A program made the translations under genes and the position numbers. Of a stretch of DNA of 24,983 nucleotides, positions 1-15,885 are shown piece after piece. The notes below the pieces were generated by a model. That model worked only from the letters and a program-made list of their open reading frames with translations, did no database searches and was not told where the DNA came from. Numbering within the stretch: position 1 is the stretch's first letter; every line of letters starts with the position of its first letter. Source of the stretch: a virus; IMG/VR virus record IMGVR_UViG_3300040946_000098, positions 1 through 24,983 of that record. One strand, given 5' to 3'.

Positions 1-1541
1 CGATTGTTGCTCAGAAGCGGGCGAAGTTCAGGATGCACGCGGAGAAAATAATCCTTGAACGATCCATCTGGTTCTGGTGTCGAGTTGACCACCTTAACCA
101 TTACCAGCGGTTCATCTCCCGGAATCTCCTTGCGGTAGAGAGTCCCGAAATCGTCCTTGTGGATCTCCACCGCACCCGAATCAAGCAAGTAGCGGGGTAA
201 CCCGTACCTCTCCATCATGACACGCCGCACTTCTGCGTTAGTTTCTTTCTCAATGTGCTGAGCGCTCAAACGCTCAGGATAGTCGATAATCCACCGCGGC
301 ACCCTCACTCCACGGACTGCATAGAGTGCCGAACCGTCGCGCCACTGGCAGAACGGTCCATCGTCGCAGTGGGGCCGATTTTCAGAATCCACTTTGAGCA
401 CAACTGGCCTCTGGCAGACCAGGCAAAACTCTTTGTGCATCACGCGTGGTCCGGCAGTGGCTAGAATCTCGTAAGGATTCCACTTCTCATAGTCGATGGG
501 CAGTTGTGCGACGTGCCGAAAGAAGCTCAAAAAAGCTGTCCATCCAGACCATTGATTCCCACCATTCCACATCTTGTAGGCATTGATAGCACATCGCAGG
601 AGAAAATCTGACGGCCCAAAGGTAGCAGCCAGAGCACCGAAATCACCATCGCAGCGATACCACTTGTCCCTCGTGGCGTCCCACGTGGCGGCCTCCGTGG
701 CGTCCCTCGTGGCGTCCCACGTGGCGGCCTCCGTGGCGGCCTTCGTGGCGTCCTCCGTGGCGGCCCACGTGGCGGCCCACGTGGCGTCCCACGTGGCGGC
801 CTCCGTGGCGTCCCTCGTGGCGTCCCTCGTGGCGTCCCTCGTGGCGGCCCTCGTGGCGGCCCTCGTGGCGGCCTCCGTGGCGGCCTCCGTGGCGGCCACC
901 GTGGCGTCCCTCGTGGCGGCCCTCGTGGCGGCCCTCGTGGCGTCCCACGTGGCGGCCTCCGTGGCGGCCTCCGTGGCGGCCTCCGTGGCGTCCCACGTGG
1001 CGTCCCTCGTGGCGTCCCTCGTGGCGTCCCTCGTGGCGTCCTCCGTGGCGGCCCTCGTGGCGGCCCACGTGGCGGCCCACGTGGCGGCCTCCGTGGCGGC
1101 CTCCGTGGCGGCCTTCGTGGCGGCCCTCGTGGCGGCCTTCGTGGCGTCCTCCGTGGCGGCCCTCGTGGCGGCCCTCGTGGCGTCCTCCGTGGCGTCCCAC
1201 GTGGCGTCCTCCGTGGCGGCCCTCGTGGCGTCCCACGTGGCGGCCTCCGTGGCGGCCCTCGTGGCGTCCTCCGTGGCGGAATGCAATCGCAAATACCAGA
1301 TAGCAGCAGCGAAGCCCCCCGCGAACTGCGCAACAAATGGCGATGGCACGATGATGATCCTATGCCGTGGCGGCGGCGTCAAATTCGCGGCCTTGTACAG
1401 ATCCTCAACCGCTTCAACAATGGCTTTCCTTCCCGCGTCGTCCATCGACTTAGTCGAGAACGCATTCGCAATCCATTTGTCGCGCCAGGGCACAAACTGG
1501 CTTTGGTGCTCGGGTGTGAGTTCGTACTTCGTCATATTCAT
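1..1541 (-). CDS. DUF6745-type repeat protein, 3' end cut by window edge
   Basis: The frame is open from ATG at 1541 down to base 1, giving at least 513 residues, and the stop lies outside the window. An alternative in-frame ATG is at 1535. Residues 1-89 form an N-terminal region (LTPEHQSQFVPWRDKWI, then LYKAANLTPPPRHRIIIVPS). Residues about 90-290 are 50 tetrapeptides of the form Thr-X-(Asp/Ala)-Ala. The rest carries features I recall from DUF6745 proteins: WTAFLSFFRHV, NAEVRRVMMERYG, GTLYRKE, and VNSTPEPDGSFKDYFLRVHP. From memory, other DUF6745 proteins also have W/R/D-rich tetrapeptide arrays in this position. The biochemical function is unknown. The gene starts one base after the upstream stop (TGA-T-ATG), so it is the last visible gene of a three-gene cassette. 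Family assignment is from recalled motifs and was not searched. Confidence 0.85.
   Translation of the reverse strand, partial: MNMTKYELTPEHQSQFVPWRDKWIANAFSTKSMDDAGRKAIVEAVEDLYKAANLTPPPRHRIIIVPSPFVAQFAGGFAAAIWYLRLHSATEDATRAATEAATWDATRAATEDATWDATEDATRAATRAATEDATKAATRAATKAATEAATEAATWAATWAATRAATEDATRDATRDATRDATWDATEAATEAATEAATWDATRAATRAATRDATVAATEAATEAATRAATRAATRDATRDATRDATEAATWDATWAATWAATEDATKAATEAATWDATRDATEAATWDATRDKWYRCDGDFGALAATFGPSDFLLRCAINAYKMWNGGNQWSGWTAFLSFFRHVAQLPIDYEKWNPYEILATAGPRVMHKEFCLVCQRPVVLKVDSENRPHCDDGPFCQWRDGSALYAVRGVRVPRWIIDYPERLSAQHIEKETNAEVRRVMMERYGLPRYLLDSGAVEIHKDDFGTLYRKEIPGDEPLVMVKVVNSTPEPDGSFKDYFLRVHPELRPLLSNN
673..1278 (-). repeat. Tandem array of 50 twelve-bp units inside the DUF6745 gene
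   Basis: On the plus strand the unit is GTGGCGKCCHHC, starting at 673 and holding exact 12-bp phase to 1272, followed by a terminal GTGGCG at 1273-1278. Read in the gene's frame, each unit is ACG-NNG-GMC-GCC, that is Thr-X-(Asp/Ala)-Ala. By hand count X is Arg 18, Glu 17, Trp 11, Lys 3 and Val 1, and the next residue is Asp 21 or Ala 29. Only eight distinct unit sequences occur. Every difference between units changes an amino acid and no silent change is present. A change in copy number would keep the reading frame. Several other frames are also open across the array simply because the unit lacks stops. Confidence 0.97.
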
Positions 1542-4328: not shown

Positions 4329-5003
4329 TCATCGCCCATGCACCGCTTGAGTCCCGCCATTATTGGCGGAAGACACTTCCGCGTGGCCTCCGGGTGCCAC
4401 ATTGATTTGCATGGCGAGTTGCGGGGGCTTGTTTTTGGGCTTGCCACTGCCTGCCTTGGCGTGGGCTTCCTTGGCCAGGGCCATGATCTCCTTGGTCTTT
4501 TCCCCGTGCGCCTTGCTCAGGTGGCCGAGGTTGACAGCCGCCCTCTCGATGGCCTCTGGCGTGGCTGTGGGCGAGTCCAGCATCTTCCGGTAAGCGTCGA
4601 TGGTCTCCTCCAGGAGCCTGAGTTGGTAGGAAGCGCGCGCCAGCATGTTCGCCGCCACCATGTCGGGCTGGACACTCTCGCTGCCGGTGACCAGGATGCC
4701 CGTGACCTTCTGGCTACAGGTGGCGGGGTTGGCGAGGGCCGTCTTCCATTCCTGATGGATTCTCCGTGTCCTGGCGGGCGAGTTCCTGAGCGAGACTTGG
4801 GGCACCAGGTCCGGCCTCCGGCCCGCGTACCGCGCCGGGACTGGCTGGGGTGACGGTGACGACAAAGGTGCAACAAGGCTGGGGTCGAGCGTTCCGGCTG
4901 GGGGCGTCGGCGCCGGAAGCTCGCCATCCGTTTCCAGCAAAGGATCGGAGGGCGGTGTTTCCGCCGTCGATGGTATCGTCGAGCCAGCAGGTTGATTCGG
5001 CAT
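4329..5003 (-). CDS. Pro-rich then helical phage protein of unknown function
   Basis: This is a 224-residue protein. Residues 1-60 are low-complexity and rich in Pro, Ser and Thr. Residues about 80-165 look helical (ANMLARASYQLRLLEETIDAYRKML, read in two pieces, then AIERAAVNLGHLSKAHGEKT), followed by a Lys/Ala-rich stretch and a flexible tail. The position in the terminase operon and the helical core would suit a packaging or head accessory protein. No helix-turn-helix is visible, so I do not call it a small terminase. Its first 290 bases overlap the zinc-ribbon-like reading frame. The true start could therefore be further in, although ATG at 5003 is the first candidate. Confidence 0.65.
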   Translation of the reverse strand: MPNQPAGSTIPSTAETPPSDPLLETDGELPAPTPPAGTLDPSLVAPLSSPSPQPVPARYAGRRPDLVPQVSLRNSPARTRRIHQEWKTALANPATCSQKVTGILVTGSESVQPDMVAANMLARASYQLRLLEETIDAYRKMLDSPTATPEAIERAAVNLGHLSKAHGEKTKEIMALAKEAHAKAGSGKPKNKPPQLAMQINVAPGGHAEVSSANNGGTQAVHGR

Positions 5004-5328
5004 AACGGGCCTTGGCCAGCATTAGGCACCAGCAGCCGACATCATGCAAGCCTTTTTCGAGAGGACTCCCGCACGTCCCCCAGCGGCGCGAGTAGAACGG
5101 GCAGCGGTGGCAGGTGACCAAACGACGTTTGTAGAGGGCTGTCGGGGCCAATGCACCGACGGCGCGGGCGAGGCGGGTCCAGACCTTGAGGGCACCCCAC
5201 AGCCGGCCTAGGCCGACGCGCGGCGTTGCCAGGGAAAAGAAGCCCGCCACCAGCACCGCCCGGGAAAGCTGCCAGCGGTCGAGCCAGGGGCGCATACCCC
5301 AGAGGCGGAATTGGGCTGGATTGCTCAC
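4714..5328 (-). CDS. Zinc-ribbon-like Cys-rich phage protein
   Basis: The distinctive core is RLVTCHRCPFYSRRWGTCGSP, read as RLVTCHRCP then FYSRRWGTCGSP, followed by DVGCWCLMLAKARY and ESTCWLDD. That gives at least seven cysteines in CxxC-like pairs, typical of small zinc-binding phage proteins I recall without an assigned function. The start is uncertain. GTG at 5328 forms a GTGA overlap with a 12-codon mini-frame (5363-5325), and ATG at 5295 is an alternative. The conserved core ends near 5000. The remaining 95 or so codons overlap the 224-residue gene in another frame and look unstructured, so the biologically relevant end may be earlier or altered by a frameshift. An N-terminal hydrophobic stretch (LSRAVLVAGFFSLA) is short for a membrane anchor. 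Confidence 0.6.
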   Translation of the reverse strand: MSNPAQFRLWGMRPWLDRWQLSRAVLVAGFFSLATPRVGLGRLWGALKVWTRLARAVGALAPTALYKRRLVTCHRCPFYSRRWGTCGSPLEKGLHDVGCWCLMLAKARYAESTCWLDDTIDGGNTALRSFAGNGWRASGADAPSRNARPQPCCTFVVTVTPASPGAVRGPEAGPGAPSLAQELARQDTENPSGMEDGPRQPRHL

Positions 5329-5389
5329 ACCGTCCCGGTGTTGGCGCTTGGCTCTTTGCTCATATCGGTTACGCGGGGGATTGAGAGCT

Positions 5390-5554
5390 TTACGGGGCGC
5401 GATGCAGGATTGCTTCAACCTCGGCCAAAATTCCAGCATCCGCCAATTCTCGGAGTTGCCCGGTTTTGAAGGGGCCGAGGTTAACCTGATAATACTGGAC
5501 AAGAGCTTCCATGCGGTTGATTTCGTCCACCAAATTGCCGATTGCGCGAATCAT
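5390..5554 (-). CDS. Small helical protein of unknown function
   Basis: From ATG at 5554 this encodes 54 residues: an amphipathic helix (MIRAIGNLVDEINRMEALVQ) followed by a second helical part (TGQLRELADAGILAEVEAIL). The same frame is open upstream to 5752, but that extension would overlap the cysteine protease by about 180 bases. The internal ATG, 19 bases after the protease stop, is therefore the more economical start. I do not recognise the family. It lies inside the terminase-led operon and may be a small head or lysis accessory, but nothing in the sequence decides this. Confidence 0.6.
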   Translation of the reverse strand: MIRAIGNLVDEINRMEALVQYYQVNLGPFKTGQLRELADAGILAEVEAILHRAP

Positions 5555-5573
5555 GTCTTTTGTGTAGCGGGCG

Positions 5574-6107
5574 TCAACCCTGGACGACTTCAATTCCGTG
5601 CGTCGGCCACCAGCTTCCATCGGCCTTGGGTTCGCAGCCATCCAGGATGTAGGGCACGATGCGCCCGGCCCAGGCGACGACAGAGCACCAATGAGGATCG
5701 CTCTCACAAAATCCCATCGTGTTGATGTCAAAAACGAACCGGGCCGCCCCATAATCGCGCACCGCTATCCAGTGCGTATGCCGATACCGGACGCGCATCG
5801 GGACGCCGGGTTTGGTCCAAGGGCCGCCCCATTGGATGCGCACGAGGCCGTTTTTGAGGACGGGCAATGACTTGCCGGGCTCATCGGCTCGGTATGCCAT
5901 TGCAAGCTTAACCCGCGCCCGTTTAAGGGCGTCGATCATCAGGGTTGGGTTGGTGTAGCCCTTGTCCTCAAAGCCGGGCATCAAGCCTCGGACAACGGGC
6001 AGCGAAACGTCGAGGCAGGCGGCCAAAGCGGTCGGGCCGCAGTTGCAGCCCCAGGTTTTCGAGGCGAGTTCGGCGTCGGCGAGAGTAAAGGCTTTTATGG
6101 GAATCAA
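5574..6107 (-). CDS. C39/papain-like cysteine protease
   Basis: This 177-residue protein shows a plausible Cys-His-Asp catalytic arrangement: WGCNCGPTALAACL with Cys23 as candidate nucleophile, RHTHWIAVRD with His112, and FDIN with Asp127 or Asn129. This pattern is shared by peptidase C39-like and related papain-fold enzymes. The start is TTG at 6107, overlapping the upstream stop as TTGA. The next internal ATG would remove the catalytic Cys. There is no signal peptide. It sits two genes after the terminase, so it could process head proteins or act on the host envelope, and the sequence does not distinguish these. The fold call rests on motif spacing. Confidence 0.7.
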   Translation of the reverse strand: MIPIKAFTLADAELASKTWGCNCGPTALAACLDVSLPVVRGLMPGFEDKGYTNPTLMIDALKRARVKLAMAYRADEPGKSLPVLKNGLVRIQWGGPWTKPGVPMRVRYRHTHWIAVRDYGAARFVFDINTMGFCESDPHWCSVVAWAGRIVPYILDGCEPKADGSWWPTHGIEVVQG

Positions 6108-6232
6108 CCAGATCCTTTCAATTGGGGAATCAATCCGGGATGCACCCTGGCCGGGTCAATCACCGGATGTTCCGGTTGTGAGCGGTCGCCACACAAATCG
6201 CAGCAGAGGACTATCGTGGTTTCTTTAGGCAT
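6104..6232 (-). CDS. 42-residue Cys-motif protein
   Basis: From ATG at 6232 this gives a 42-residue protein beginning MPKETTIVLCCDLCGDRSQ. The CC-x2-C cluster could bind a metal. The ATG lies in an A-rich context, and the stop overlaps the protease TTG start (TTGA), so the two are probably translationally coupled. The frame is also open upstream to a GTG at 6391, which overlaps the terminase stop as GTGA. If used, that start would give 95 residues and place the interleaved inverted repeats inside coding sequence. The extra N-terminal part reads as low-quality protein, so the shorter form is preferred with modest certainty. Confidence 0.5.
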   Translation of the reverse strand: MPKETTIVLCCDLCGDRSQPEHPVIDPARVHPGLIPQLKGSG

Positions 6233-6251
6233 ATTTTCGCGGAAATTCTCG

Positions 6252-6342
6252 GAACTGACCCCGAGGCAGTCGCTCAAGACGGCTCGCCCGAGGGTGAGTT
6301 TCCCCAGGGTCAGTTCGGAAAATTCCAGCGTCCGTCTTGAGC
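6252..6342 (-). other. Interleaved inverted repeats (candidate pseudoknot or switch)
   Basis: Two perfect inverted repeats interlock in the order A-B-A'-B' on the plus strand. A is GAACTGACCC at 6252-6261 and A' is GGGTCAGTTC at 6307-6316. B is GCTCAAGACGG at 6272-6282 and B' is CCGTCTTGAGC at 6332-6342. The A pair extends imperfectly outward to 6241 and 6326. In minus-strand RNA the B' copy comes first. This gives an H-type pseudoknot topology with an 11-bp and a 10-bp stem, or two mutually exclusive hairpins. It lies between the terminase stop and the 42-residue gene. Confidence 0.7.
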
Positions 6343-6387
6343 ATGAAACCATCGTAAGTGAAAGACGACGCCGCGTCAATCGAAAAA

Positions 6388-8025
6388 TCACGACGGCACA
6401 AAAACCATGCTCGATTCCCTACGCCTGCCCACCCGCATCTCCCTCGCCACTTCCCTTCCCACTTCATCGTAAAGCTCCTCGGTGACTAGGTAGCGCGCCG
6501 CGTCGAACGGATGCTTGGCCGGGCTTCCCGGCTGAATCAGCCGCGTGCCTGTCTTTGGCTTCCGTAGCACCTTGTTGGCCTCGACCAGCTTCGGGCAGTT
6601 CGCCGCCGAGAAGTACATCCGCTCCTCGAACAAAAGCCGGTTCCACAGGTCGATCCCGGGCGCGAGACTGCCCGGGGAGCGATCCGCCGCCACGAGCACG
6701 ATCTTGAGACTCTCCGGGAACTCGCCCCGCTTGATCCACATCACGGAGGTAACGTAGATGAGTTGCGAAAGGAGCATGAGGCTGCGTTGCTCCAGGCGCT
6801 CGAAAACGCTCCGGTCGGACCAATGCCGCCACTTCACCCGGTTGACCCGGTTCAGGTGGACTTCCCATTTCAGCATTTTCTTCATAAACTCGTACACGAA
6901 ATCCTCAATGCGGTGCGGTTCACCGGTGATGACTTCTTCGTCCAGGAACTTGATGACGGGCACGCGAATCACGGTCTCCTCGCCGTCTTCGTGTTTCACC
7001 GTTTCCGTGACGCGGGATACCTTTTCGGCAATGACGGCGGCCGAGTTCACGGAGTCGCCCGGGTCCCAGCCGCAGATTAGCTCGGCGCAGGTGTCCAGGG
7101 GCAGAAGCGTTTCGGGCTCGTGTACGGCGGGGGTTGGAGTGTCCCCGATAACGTGGATGGTCTGGCGGAAGGTCTCCGCAAAGAGAGAGTTCTCCGTGGT
7201 CCGGGTCGGTTCGCCCAGGATGTATCGCTTGTACAGGTCCTGGTTGTGGGCGTACTTGGCTTTGAGGAGGGCGACGTGTTTCAAATCGGCCCAGGGGTTG
7301 TCTTCCAGGAAGAAGTCCAGCCGGTAGAGGTTATGCTTCAACTCCAGCAGGGCGTCCATGGCTTCCGGGTCTTCCGGGTCAAAGCCCCAGTCGGAGGGAT
7401 TCAGGGCGGCTTCGTCGGCGTCGTGGAGATCCCACCATAGGTCGTGAATCCACCAGCAGGTATCGTCCGGCGGGTTGCCATCCGCAAGGAAAAGGTGTTT
7501 GTTCTCCGGCAGTCCCACCATGCGAAGGCACTCGGTCCAGGTGTCGAACGTCTGCCGCTTCGTGAACGTAGTGACCTCTGGGACGTAGATCATGGAGTAC
7601 CGCCGGGGCTTGAACCTCTCCTCGACTTCATCCTCGACTGCCAGGGATTCGAGCGAAATCTGAGTTTCCCCGCCATCGATATTCGTGATGGCACAGTAGG
7701 GCTTTTTGGTCGTGCCGTTGATGCTGGGCTCCCGGGCCCAGTCGAAGCCGAAATTACCGTCGATCCACTCCGGGATGACGATCTTTGTCAGGTCTTGCCA
7801 CACGCCGGAGTCCATGCCGACGGTCTGCGAGATCGTCACGATGGCGACATTGCCAGGCGTGGTATTCCAGGCGTGCTCAACGAGGGCGTGGAGGCAGCCT
7901 ACGGTCTTGGCTGTGTAGCGCCGTCCGTTGGCGAGGACGTAGCGATACTGCCGGCACGCCTGGCGGAGTTCATCCCGCTTGGGGCAGGTCGTGGGCGACC
8001 AGTTACCATCGGCATCTACGGGCAT
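6388..8025 (-). CDS. terL: Phage terminase large subunit
   Basis: This 545-residue protein has both domains of a DNA-packaging motor. The ATPase part has a Walker A-like NGRRYTAKT at 33-41 with Lys40, a Walker B-like SMIYVPE ending in Glu150, and a coupling-type LADGNP near 180-185. The RNase H-like nuclease part has candidate metal ligands Asp321 (GWDPGDS), Asp404 (HWSDRS) and Asp508 (KHPFDAARY). The length is normal for the family. Two oddities are Ala where Gly usually precedes the Walker A Lys, and Pro where Asp usually precedes the Walker B Glu. ATG at 8025 leaves a short N terminus before Walker A. The gene leads the minus-strand operon and is divergent from the portal arm. No small terminase is recognisable here. 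Confidence 0.92.
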   Translation of the reverse strand: MPVDADGNWSPTTCPKRDELRQACRQYRYVLANGRRYTAKTVGCLHALVEHAWNTTPGNVAIVTISQTVGMDSGVWQDLTKIVIPEWIDGNFGFDWAREPSINGTTKKPYCAITNIDGGETQISLESLAVEDEVEERFKPRRYSMIYVPEVTTFTKRQTFDTWTECLRMVGLPENKHLFLADGNPPDDTCWWIHDLWWDLHDADEAALNPSDWGFDPEDPEAMDALLELKHNLYRLDFFLEDNPWADLKHVALLKAKYAHNQDLYKRYILGEPTRTTENSLFAETFRQTIHVIGDTPTPAVHEPETLLPLDTCAELICGWDPGDSVNSAAVIAEKVSRVTETVKHEDGEETVIRVPVIKFLDEEVITGEPHRIEDFVYEFMKKMLKWEVHLNRVNRVKWRHWSDRSVFERLEQRSLMLLSQLIYVTSVMWIKRGEFPESLKIVLVAADRSPGSLAPGIDLWNRLLFEERMYFSAANCPKLVEANKVLRKPKTGTRLIQPGSPAKHPFDAARYLVTEELYDEVGREVAREMRVGRRRESSMVFVPS

Positions 8026-8107
8026 GGGTAAAGATTATTCTTGCATTCTCGTGGCGGTTGCCATTAAGACAATCTTAGCGCCCCGACCGGCAAGGGGTCA
8101 AGACACC
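8026..8107. promoter_or_regulatory. Divergent intergenic region between the two arms
   Basis: These 82 bases separate the terminase start from the first plus-strand gene and must hold any local promoters for both arms. A 13-bp palindrome, TAAGA-CAA-TCTTA, lies at 8065-8077 and could be an operator. A possible plus-strand promoter pairs TTGCAT (8041-8046) with a weak TTAAGA 17 bases later (8064-8069), overlapping the palindrome. No convincing consensus promoter was found, and a phage-specific polymerase cannot be excluded. Confidence 0.35.
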
Positions 8108-8461
8108 ATGCCATACGACGTGCAACCGATGCTGGACGAAGAATACGGCAGCACCGACAATCGGATGACCCTGAGCCCGACGACCTACGATTGGGTCGGG
8201 GAGATGGAATCGGGGAAGGAGTATACCGTGTCCTGCAAGGTCCGGGTGCAGACGCCGGGCCGGATGGCGGTGGTGGCCGCAGTGAAGCCGCCGGAAATGG
8301 AGGCGGCGGAAGGGGAGCCCGGCACGGAATCACCGGACGTAGAGGGTGACCACGACCTTTCCGGGACACCAGGGGGGCGGGAAGGAGAGGCCCCGCAGAT
8401 GGTGACCGGCAACCCGGCGGTGGACTCGCTTATGGCCAAGCGCAGCCGCAACGCCATGTAA
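8108..8461 (+). CDS. Small portal-adjacent protein, paralog 1
   Basis: From ATG at 8108 this encodes 117 residues. The frame is open further upstream, but that part lies over the terminase N terminus. The middle has GKEYTVSCKVRVQTPG, a beta-strand-like segment, then an acidic Glu/Gly/Pro-rich linker, and it ends MVTGNPAVDSLMAKRSRNAM. The next gene has the same layout and a matching C-terminal motif (TGNPAIDRLMKRKG), so the two are probable tandem paralogs. The position just before the portal suggests a head accessory or decoration role, which is inference. I do not recognise a named family. Confidence 0.75.
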   Translation: MPYDVQPMLDEEYGSTDNRMTLSPTTYDWVGEMESGKEYTVSCKVRVQTPGRMAVVAAVKPPEMEAAEGEPGTESPDVEGDHDLSGTPGGREGEAPQMVTGNPAVDSLMAKRSRNAM

Positions 8462-13608: not shown

Positions 13609-13740
13609 GCGATAACCGTAGCAGTAAGGCTTGAGACGCCACTGCGCGGTTAATCGTTTGCAGCAGCATTCAAGGTCGGGCCTGTTGCCCGACCGCCCGC
13701 CTTGGGGCACCGCAAGCCGTATTTTAACCAATACGATCTT
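13609..13740 (+). promoter_or_regulatory. Structured leader of the capsid gene
   Basis: This 132-base gap is the longest between plus-strand genes. A perfect 8-bp hairpin, GGTCGGGC (13674-13681) and GCCCGACC (13687-13694), has a 5-base loop and no T tract. A second perfect 6-bp inverted repeat, CGTATT (13718-13723) and AATACG (13730-13735), flanks TTAACC and ends five bases before the capsid ATG. Together they suggest message stabilisation or control of initiation for the most highly needed virion protein. No clear promoter is visible. Confidence 0.5.
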
Positions 13741-15816
13741 ATGGCACTGTCTGCCCCCGATGCCCCGGTAGCGTTCCAAATGAACCCCAACGCATTTGCG
13801 AAATGCGCGCCGGCGGTCTCCACGAACATCCGCGAGTGTGGTACGGTCACGCTCTGCAACATGAAGCCGATGACGGCAAACGACCTGACCAACGTTTACC
13901 TCAAATCATCGCAGTTCCGGGTCATCAAGGACATGCTCAAGCACGAGATCGAGTTGAAGATGTGCGCGCCGGTCCAGAACGGGCTGTGGGACTTCCTGAT
14001 GGCCAACAAGGTCGACGTCAGCCGGAAGATCCAGACCGGCGGCGAGAACGGCTCCGGGCTCTTGGAGATCAAGCCGTTCATCCTAGCCAAGCGGTATCAC
14101 CCCATCAACAACGAGTGGTGGATCATCACCCAGGGCCAGCAGGACACCGGCAACTCCAGCGGCTTCGGCACGAACACCTGGATCTGCCAGGTCACGTCCT
14201 CGACCAATATCCCCGCCGACGTGCGCAGTTTTCCGCCTGACATGTACGTCTTTGCCGAGGGTGTTTCCTCCGGGGGCACTGCCACCAGGACCGCCTGGAA
14301 GGTCATCAACAGCGTGGTCAACACCGCCGGGAACTACATCACGCTTTATCTGGAGGACATGAACTCCGGTTCGCACCTGCCCGCTTCCAAGCTCGGCGCG
14401 CCCGTGTCCGGCCTGATGATGCGCGGCACGAACAACAAGCACGACGCCGAAGCCTGGTGCGCCGAGGGTCCGGCCTACCGGAACTGGACGAAGTTCCCGT
14501 TCTTCTTCCAGACCTGGCGCCGGAGCTTCTGCTGGAGCGAGCACTACCACAAGTGGCGGAAGTACGCTCTCCAGAACGACCTCTACAGGGAGTTCTTCGA
14601 TCTGGACGAAACCGAGCGCAACAAGCAGTTGGCCGCGGATGACCGGCGGCAATTCTGCCAGATGTTCTTCCGCAACCCGCCCATTTCCAACTTCCAGACC
14701 TACTACGACTTCGACAAGCTCGACCCGATCCCGAGTTTTGACCCCGCCGACATTGGCCTTGAGGGGCTGGGCGTTGACGGTGGCCGATGCGTCGGTTACC
14801 GGGCCAATGCGACCGGCTTCTACGATCAGATGTCCGAATGCGGCCGAGTCTGGGATATGCAGGGCTCCACGCCCTACATCTCCGACCTGGCGATCCTCCT
14901 GTACAACATGATGCGGGTGAAGGAAGGCCGCGGGCATCCCAAGCCCAAGGTTTTTGACCTGTTCACCGATTCGATCTCCGCTTACTGGCTCAACACCGCG
15001 TTCCTGGCCTACTACAAGGCCCAGGGGCAGGGCATGGTCCAGATCCACGTCGAGGCCGGCAAGTTCTCGGACGAAAAGGAGGCCCAGTTCGGCTTCCGGT
15101 ACAAGACGTTCCAATTCTTCTGGCCGCAAGGCGTCACGATCAACGTCATCACGCACGAATATTTCGACGACTGGATGACCGCTACCCAAGCCGCCGTCAC
15201 TGCGGGCGCCAACTCCGCGTTCGCCAACACTAGCCGGGTGTGGTGGATCATCGATTGGACGACGACCTACCCTGGGATCATCGCTTCCAACCGGGTGATC
15301 AACAAGTCGGGTGACCTCAAGACGCTGGCCGCCATCGATCCCAAGGGCTACGGCTGCACGATGAAGGTCTTCACCCAGGAGCAAACGTTGATCTCCACAA
15401 CCTATTGCGTTGTGGTGGATTGCCCGGGCGCGAACGCGGTCATCGAAAACATCGGCCCGACCAACGGCTACCTCACCGGACGAAGCGGCAATCCCGACGC
15501 GGGGGCCAACACCTACGCCGGCATGTGCGTGCCCGACCCAAGCTCCGCACCGCTGGATACCTTCGGCACTGTGGGCGGCGGCGCGACCACGACCACGACC
15601 ACCAGCACGGTTGCGGTGTATGCCAACACGCAGCAGAGTGCGACGTGGACGAATCGAGTCGGTGCCACCCAGACGGTCTATATCCCCGCCGGGACGTTCC
15701 ATTCCTCGCAATCGCAGACGGTGGCCAACAACATGGCCCTGGACGCCGCGAGCGCCGAGGCCGAGCAACTGGCCGCTTTGGACGTTGCACCTGAGCAGAC
15801 TCAGGTTGGCCCGTAA
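13741..15816 (+). CDS. Major capsid protein with C-terminal DUF5977-like extension
   Basis: From ATG at 13741 this encodes 691 residues. The frame is open upstream from a TTG at 13702, but the ATG fits the local start pattern (CTT-ATG). The call rests on position after the scaffold, size, an alpha/beta composition without low complexity up to about residue 610, the following terminator, and general resemblance to capsid proteins of large podovirus-like phages. After about residue 615 a Thr-rich linker (ATTTTTTSTVAV) leads into a module (VYIPAGTFHSSQSQTVANN, then an Ala/Glu-rich helix) matching modules in two other virion proteins. This extension probably projects from the capsid surface. I cannot confirm an HK97 fold by eye. 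Confidence 0.78.
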   Translation: MALSAPDAPVAFQMNPNAFAKCAPAVSTNIRECGTVTLCNMKPMTANDLTNVYLKSSQFRVIKDMLKHEIELKMCAPVQNGLWDFLMANKVDVSRKIQTGGENGSGLLEIKPFILAKRYHPINNEWWIITQGQQDTGNSSGFGTNTWICQVTSSTNIPADVRSFPPDMYVFAEGVSSGGTATRTAWKVINSVVNTAGNYITLYLEDMNSGSHLPASKLGAPVSGLMMRGTNNKHDAEAWCAEGPAYRNWTKFPFFFQTWRRSFCWSEHYHKWRKYALQNDLYREFFDLDETERNKQLAADDRRQFCQMFFRNPPISNFQTYYDFDKLDPIPSFDPADIGLEGLGVDGGRCVGYRANATGFYDQMSECGRVWDMQGSTPYISDLAILLYNMMRVKEGRGHPKPKVFDLFTDSISAYWLNTAFLAYYKAQGQGMVQIHVEAGKFSDEKEAQFGFRYKTFQFFWPQGVTINVITHEYFDDWMTATQAAVTAGANSAFANTSRVWWIIDWTTTYPGIIASNRVINKSGDLKTLAAIDPKGYGCTMKVFTQEQTLISTTYCVVVDCPGANAVIENIGPTNGYLTGRSGNPDAGANTYAGMCVPDPSSAPLDTFGTVGGGATTTTTTSTVAVYANTQQSATWTNRVGATQTVYIPAGTFHSSQSQTVANNMALDAASAEAEQLAALDVAPEQTQVGP

Positions 15817-15850: not shown

Positions 15851-15885
15851 GGCCGGGACAGTTGTAAAAGCTGTTCCGGCCTTTT
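15851..15885 (+). terminator. Rho-independent terminator after the capsid gene
   Basis: GGCCGGGACAG (15851-15861) pairs with CTGTTCCGGCC (15871-15881) over 11 bp, with a single G-U pair and a 9-base loop. TTTT follows at 15882-15885. It begins 34 bases after the capsid stop and would partly separate capsid expression from the downstream tail genes. Confidence 0.85.

What the first reader, a model, noticed from the sequence alone, without database searches (positions are those of the whole stretch)
6241..6342. Interleaved A-B-A'-B' inverted repeats behind the terminase gene
Two perfect inverted repeats of 10 and 11 bp interlock, so both stems can form together only as a pseudoknot, or else as alternating hairpins. 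This is unlikely by chance and sits in the longest stretch not clearly coding. It could be a phage RNA switch, a packaging-RNA-like element or a dyad protein site at the terminase gene. The frame is also open here, so it may be dual-function sequence.
Basis: partly seen in the sequence, partly recalled or inferred. Interest (0 to 1): 0.65.

Follow-up and report, generated by a model that had tools for sequence, protein, structure and literature searches.

The report
Structured RNA leader of phage cargo
Just after a phage's DNA-packaging gene, a stretch of about 110 bases looks like the start of a messenger RNA that can fold into either of two competing hairpins, possibly timing the expression of newly inserted cargo genes, but it is known from only one genome and is unproven.

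Summary
Two perfect inverted repeats (10 bp, 6252-6261/6307-6316; 11 bp, 6272-6282/6332-6342) interlock, and none of 200 shuffles of the window has such a pair. The 10-bp repeat is the core of a 29-nt stem that is strand-specific: as minus-strand RNA (the terminase strand) 27 of 29 positions pair, four of them G-U; on the plus strand those four are A-C mismatches. It is the best ungapped minus-strand stem in the window.

It does not belong to the terminase. In nine related phage lineages none has a comparable stem. In six, terL directly abuts the next conserved gene; in three, an HNH endonuclease gene is inserted there. In this window the gap holds the element, a small ORF and a papain/C39-like gene: inserted cargo.

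A sigma-70-like promoter would start RNA at the 5' end of the 11-bp arm, and the long stem ends 5 nt before an ATG. Predicted nascent folding forms the 11-bp hairpin first, then replaces it with the long stem as the leader is completed. Best reading: a cis-acting 5' leader of inserted cargo with transient and final folds, resembling the MS2 maturation-gene leader. No homologue was found, so covariation could not be tested and function is inferred.

The parts
6388..8025 (-). terL, large terminase subunit; upstream neighbour
   Evidence: phrog_2 terminase large subunit E 5.6e-10; TIGR01547 weak; relatives at 37-78% identity
6351..6379 (-). sigma-70-like promoter, TTGACG-17-TACGAT (9 of 12 matches); predicted start of RNA about 6344-6342
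   Evidence: a match placed 5-11 nt before 6342 occurs in 39 of 20000 shuffles. Consensus match only; host unknown
6332..6342 (-). arm B' (GCUCAAGACGG), 5' strand of the 11-bp stem, at the predicted 5' end of the RNA
6302..6330 (-). arm A', 5' strand of the 29-nt stem (perfect core 6307-6316)
6283..6298 (-). possible small hairpin C in the loop (CUCACCCUCGGGCGAG); probability about 0.03 in the full leader
6272..6282 (-). arm B (CCGUCUUGAGC), 3' strand of the 11-bp stem, inside the loop of the long stem
6238..6266 (-). arm A, 3' strand of the 29-nt stem; ends 5 nt before ATG 6232
6104..6232 (-). candidate small gene, 42 aa from ATG 6232 with a CCDLCG motif; no recognisable Shine-Dalgarno; no homologue found
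   Evidence: sequence; family scans negative at meaningful E-values; coding score low
6104..6391 (-).
5574..6107 (-). cargo gene, 177 aa, papain/C39-like from invariant NCGP, HW and D residues; start TTG overlaps the preceding TGA, AAAGGA upstream
   Evidence: relatives in four other phage contigs, alignment, start context
5390..5752 (-). further cargo ORF (120 codons open; about 54 aa if it starts at the internal ATG near 5554)
   Evidence: no relative
4714..5502 (-). Cys-rich ORF that directly follows terL in most relatives; marks the far end of the insertion

Best explanation
The element is the 5' leader of an mRNA read from the minus strand for cargo genes inserted between terL and the Cys-rich gene. 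Transcription starts near 6344 from a promoter just behind the terL stop codon. The nascent RNA first folds through arms B'/B (11 bp). When the last arm (A) leaves the polymerase, it pairs with A' and replaces B with a 27-pair stem ending 5 nt before the ATG at 6232. The final fold should hinder initiation at that ATG, and so, through the overlapping stop/start, limit the papain/C39-like gene; initiation would be favoured on young RNA or when something holds the B fold. Shown from sequence: both stems, the strand bias, their rarity by chance, the absence from relatives, the insertion site. Predicted: energies and order of folding. Inferred: promoter use, translational effect, any ligand or factor.
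For: Long stem exceeds every shuffled window, on the minus strand only. B arm complementarity given A: 9 of 20000. All four transition differences between the A arms are G-U on the minus strand and A-C on the plus strand. Promoter-like site placed so that RNA begins at B'. From a start at 6343, the B pair has probability of about 0.95 or more for RNA ends from 6275 to 6245; A has 0.99 or more at 6240 and 6235; constrained energies A -49.9 and B -43.1 kcal/mol; similar when started at 6388. Stem and insert are absent from relatives: nine lineages score 22-28 against 56, six have terL abutting the Cys-rich gene.
Against: No homologue of the element, so no covariation. No Rfam match. The promoter is only a 9-of-12 consensus match and the host is unknown. 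The 42-aa ORF has weak coding statistics and no homologue, so the regulated start codon is uncertain. Equilibrium folding of growing RNA is not a kinetic simulation. Much evidence was assembled after seeing the sequence.
Confidence: 0.4

Rival explanations
1. An RNase III-type processing or stability hairpin in a read-through terL-cargo mRNA: the long stem is cut or protects an end, separating the two messages; the B stem is incidental or slows folding.
For: Long minus-strand stem (27 of 29 pairs) between two genes on the same strand; such processing stems in polycistronic phage mRNAs are established knowledge for T7 and lambda (from memory, not tested here).
Against: Does not explain the perfect 11-bp loop/flank complement (9 of 20000) or the promoter-like site directly upstream.
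Confidence: 0.2
2. A DNA-level element: a dyad bound by a repressor or recombinase, or a scar of the cargo's insertion by template switching or recombination.
For: The site is an insertion hot spot (HNH genes in three relatives); a 15-of-16 direct repeat lies near the far end of the insert (5427-5442).
Against: Strand-specific G-U pairing is not expected for DNA; the direct repeat is not above shuffles window-wide (the element's best match elsewhere in the window is reached by 3 of 40 shuffles); A-B-A'-B' order cannot come from one inverted duplication.
Confidence: 0.17
3. Coding sequence of the 95-residue ORF whose pairing is accidental.
For: Frame open from a GTG overlapping the terL stop to a TGA overlapping the next start; codons 6307-6233 score coding-like.
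Against: Whole frame scores below 99.6% of equally long coding stretches of this phage; both stems exceed chance; no homologue of the peptide.
Confidence: 0.13
4. A packaging-RNA-like or cis-acting terminase element.
For: Position directly behind terL only.
Against: None of nine lineages with a readable terL 3' end has a comparable stem; covariance search negative.
Confidence: 0.03

Closest known systems
MS2 maturation-gene 5' leader (translation timed by delayed folding; described in PMC6582335 citing Poot 1997 and van Meerten 2001)
   Same: A small hairpin near the 5' end forms first; a stable fold that hinders ribosome binding follows; predicted order here is the same.
   Different: MS2 is an RNA phage with a differently built leader; here a DNA phage, two interlocked stems, no sequence relation known, no experiment.
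hok and aapA3 type I toxin mRNAs with metastable hairpins (PMC6582335, PMC6733600)
   Same: Transient hairpins during transcription compete with a final fold.
   Different: No small hydrophobic toxin or antisense RNA identified here; in aapA3 the transient hairpins block translation, whereas here the final fold is proposed to block it.
Riboswitch and attenuator leaders in general
   Same: Mutually exclusive stems in a 5' leader before a start codon, with a 5'-terminal stem.
   Different: No Rfam match, no conserved aptamer, single example.
HNH homing-endonuclease insertions next to phage terminase genes (PMC10448857)
   Same: Same insertion place behind terL in three relatives.
   Different: This window's insert has no endonuclease gene but a papain/C39-like gene.

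Membership tests
Known Rfam RNA family | score at or above the family's gathering threshold | tested here: not met
   none; best sub-threshold match has E 0.22
Metastable (kinetically timed) mRNA leader | two mutually exclusive stems in a 5' leader | tested here: inconclusive
   two mutually exclusive stems are there by sequence and thermodynamic prediction; that they lie in a 5' leader rests on a promoter consensus match
Metastable (kinetically timed) mRNA leader | early stem forms first and is replaced by a more stable one | tested here: inconclusive
   equilibrium folding of growing transcripts agrees; no kinetics or probing
Metastable (kinetically timed) mRNA leader | effect on translation of the downstream gene | not testable with these tools
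   needs reporters
Structured RNA under selection | covariation among homologues | not testable with these tools
   no homologue found
Intrinsic terminator | GC-rich stem followed by a U run | tested here: not met
   neither stem has a U tract on either strand; scan lists only a weak site at 6378-6366
Packaging-RNA-like terminase element | conserved with the terminase in related phages | tested here: not met
Programmed-frameshift pseudoknot | slippery heptamer 5-9 nt upstream of the stem | tested here: not met
   none at that distance by reading 6328-6360 on the minus strand

The most novel reading that the evidence does not exclude
A new class of cargo-borne phage RNA switch: a self-contained promoter-leader unit with interlocked stems that travels with inserted genes and times or conditions their expression, possibly with a ligand or host factor stabilising the pseudoknotted or B form.
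Probability: 0.12. Interest if true: 0.65.

Novelty: new member of a known kind. Interest (0 to 1): 0.34.

Why it matters
If true, cargo genes can enter a late phage operon with their own promoter and a self-timed leader, so they need not follow terminase expression. It would add a DNA-phage case to the few known leaders where order of folding sets translation. As it stands, one genome carries it, so it is a candidate for probing rather than a result.

Tried and rejected
Rfam at gathering and relaxed thresholds: nothing. Relatives by terL, C39-like protein, ORF95 peptide, B-arm DNA pattern, terL and portal profiles: all eight viral scans and both genome scans used; only the portal profile gave many relatives, none with the element. 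INPHARED phages: no match to terL, to the region or to the C39-like protein; the 82-residue peptide only at E 8. The ORF95 hit in L017 (E 0.002-0.004) lies far from the terL junction; I treat it as chance. The 15/16 direct repeat 5427-5442/6319-6334 looked like an insertion scar but is at shuffle level window-wide. The promoter-like site at 5577-5550 overlaps a likely start codon and is probably coincidental. One search did not apply its fold constraints (corrected). (window-wide z-scores) timed out; the ungapped-stem comparison replaced it. Frameshift pseudoknot, terminator and packaging RNA rejected as stated in the membership test. Searches failed on coordinates or strand.

Full report
WHAT IS THERE. 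The window is a 24,983-base virus record. On the minus strand, terL (8025-6388) is followed by the reported repeats, then by an open frame ending at 6104, a 177-aa gene (6107-5574), a short ORF, a Cys-rich ORF and a TerS-like ORF. No shuffled copy of the window (0 of 200) has an interlocked pair of that size, whereas single 11-bp repeats are ordinary (0.79 per shuffle).

THE LONGER STEM AND ITS STRAND. The 10-bp repeat is the core of a 29-nt stem, 6238-6266 with 6302-6330. As DNA it is 23 of 29. As minus-strand RNA 27 of 29 positions pair, because all four transition differences are G-U there; on the plus strand they are A-C. With a simple pairing score the element is the best ungapped stem of the minus strand (56; 100 shuffled windows reach at most 50), but only 36 on the plus strand, below the average shuffle maximum of 39. 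The best plus-strand stem of the window lies in a tandem repeat elsewhere (843-972). The minus-strand fold of 6228-6352 has z = -3.78 against -1.77 for the plus strand. Given the stem, an 11-bp perfect complement between its loop and a flank arises in 9 of 20,000 shuffles. So both stems are unlikely by chance and the minus-strand RNA is the likely functional form. The four-out-of-four wobble direction alone is weak evidence (1 in 16 by chance).

CAN BOTH FORM? The outer B' arm sits one base from the base of a 27-pair stem while its partner is in that stem's loop, so the two complete stems exclude each other. A partial pseudoknot (upper 15 pairs of A plus B) is conceivable: helix energies -28.3 and -19.2 kcal/mol before any pseudoknot penalty. 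This is geometric reasoning, not a model.

NOT A TERMINASE ELEMENT. A portal-protein profile brought 18 related contigs. TerL and the region behind it are readable in nine distinct lineages. In six, terL abuts the Cys-rich ORF. In three there is an insert: an HNH endonuclease gene in sense (L013; Pfam HNH) or antisense (L014, L018; PHROG HNH families). The best stems in the 400 nt behind terL score 22-28 in all nine, against 56 here. A covariance model of the element finds only itself. So the place behind terL is an insertion hot spot, as is known for endonuclease genes near terminase genes (PMC10448857), and the hairpin came with, or arose in, this phage's insert. The 177-aa gene has relatives in four other contigs with other neighbours, as expected of cargo, and keeps invariant NCGP, HW and D residues, suggesting a papain/C39-like fold (not tested by structure).

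IS IT CODING? The 95-codon frame begins with a GTG overlapping the terL stop and ends in a TGA overlapping the next gene's TTG. Its codon score is -20, below 99.6% of equally long coding stretches of this phage, although codons 6307-6233 alone look coding-like. A likelier start is ATG 6232 (MPKETTIVLCCDLCGD...), 5 nt after the long stem, but that 42-aa ORF also has a weak coding score and no homologue. Coding of the repeat region is unlikely but not excluded.

LIKELY MECHANISM. Between the terL stop and the B' arm lies TTGACG-17-TACGAT, whose transcript would begin at about 6344-6342, the first base of B'; such a placement arises in 39 of 20,000 shuffles. A similar site, TTGACC-18-TAAGAT, lies before terL. 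Folding transcripts of increasing length from 6343 gives the B stem with probability of about 0.95 or more for 3' ends from 6275 to 6245, then the A stem at 0.99 or more at 6240 and 6235; final energies are A -49.9 and B -43.1 kcal/mol. The same order appears when the transcript starts at 6388. I therefore read the element as a 5' leader of the cargo in which a first hairpin gives way to a stem that crowds the start codon, like the MS2 maturation leader and, more loosely, hok and aapA3 (PMC6582335; PMC6733600). The steps shown are the sequence features and the comparison; folding order is predicted; promoter use and translational effect are inferred.

LIMITS. There is one example and no covariation. 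The host is unknown, the promoter is a consensus match, and the folding calculation is at equilibrium. RNase III processing, a DNA dyad or insertion scar, and coding sequence remain possible. Overall the finding is a sound structural observation with a plausible but untested role.

Noticed in passing
L013 4700-5700, L014 4370-5460, L018 380-1640: The junction behind terL is an insertion hot spot: HNH endonuclease genes in three lineages, in sense or antisense; direct terL/Cys-rich gene junction in six others.
   Followed up: yes
L009 2417-5218 (same record as L012): The TerL ORF of this relative runs over 934 aa and carries an apparent intein-like insert at its Walker A region (CVAPDTLVF... 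to VGNGFINHN).
   Followed up: no
L006 3301-3990: A reverse transcriptase gene (RVT_1, E 1.1e-10) lies directly upstream of the relative of the papain/C39-like cargo gene.
   Followed up: partly
window 669-1084: Tandem repeat with unit around CCACGTGGCGKCC, giving the strongest plus-strand stems of the window, inside ORF 583-1908.
   Followed up: no
window 5427-5442 and 6319-6334: 15-of-16 direct repeat near both ends of the inserted segment; not above shuffles window-wide.
   Followed up: partly
window 15851-15881: Textbook intrinsic-terminator-like hairpin with T run, plus strand, after ORF 13702-15816.
   Followed up: no
window 8072-8108: Minus-strand terminator-like hairpin overlapping a promoter-like site just upstream of terL.
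   Followed up: no
L003 1-106: Contig starts with a 50-nt inverted repeat with a 6-nt spacer, 98% complementary, probably an assembly end artefact.
   Followed up: no
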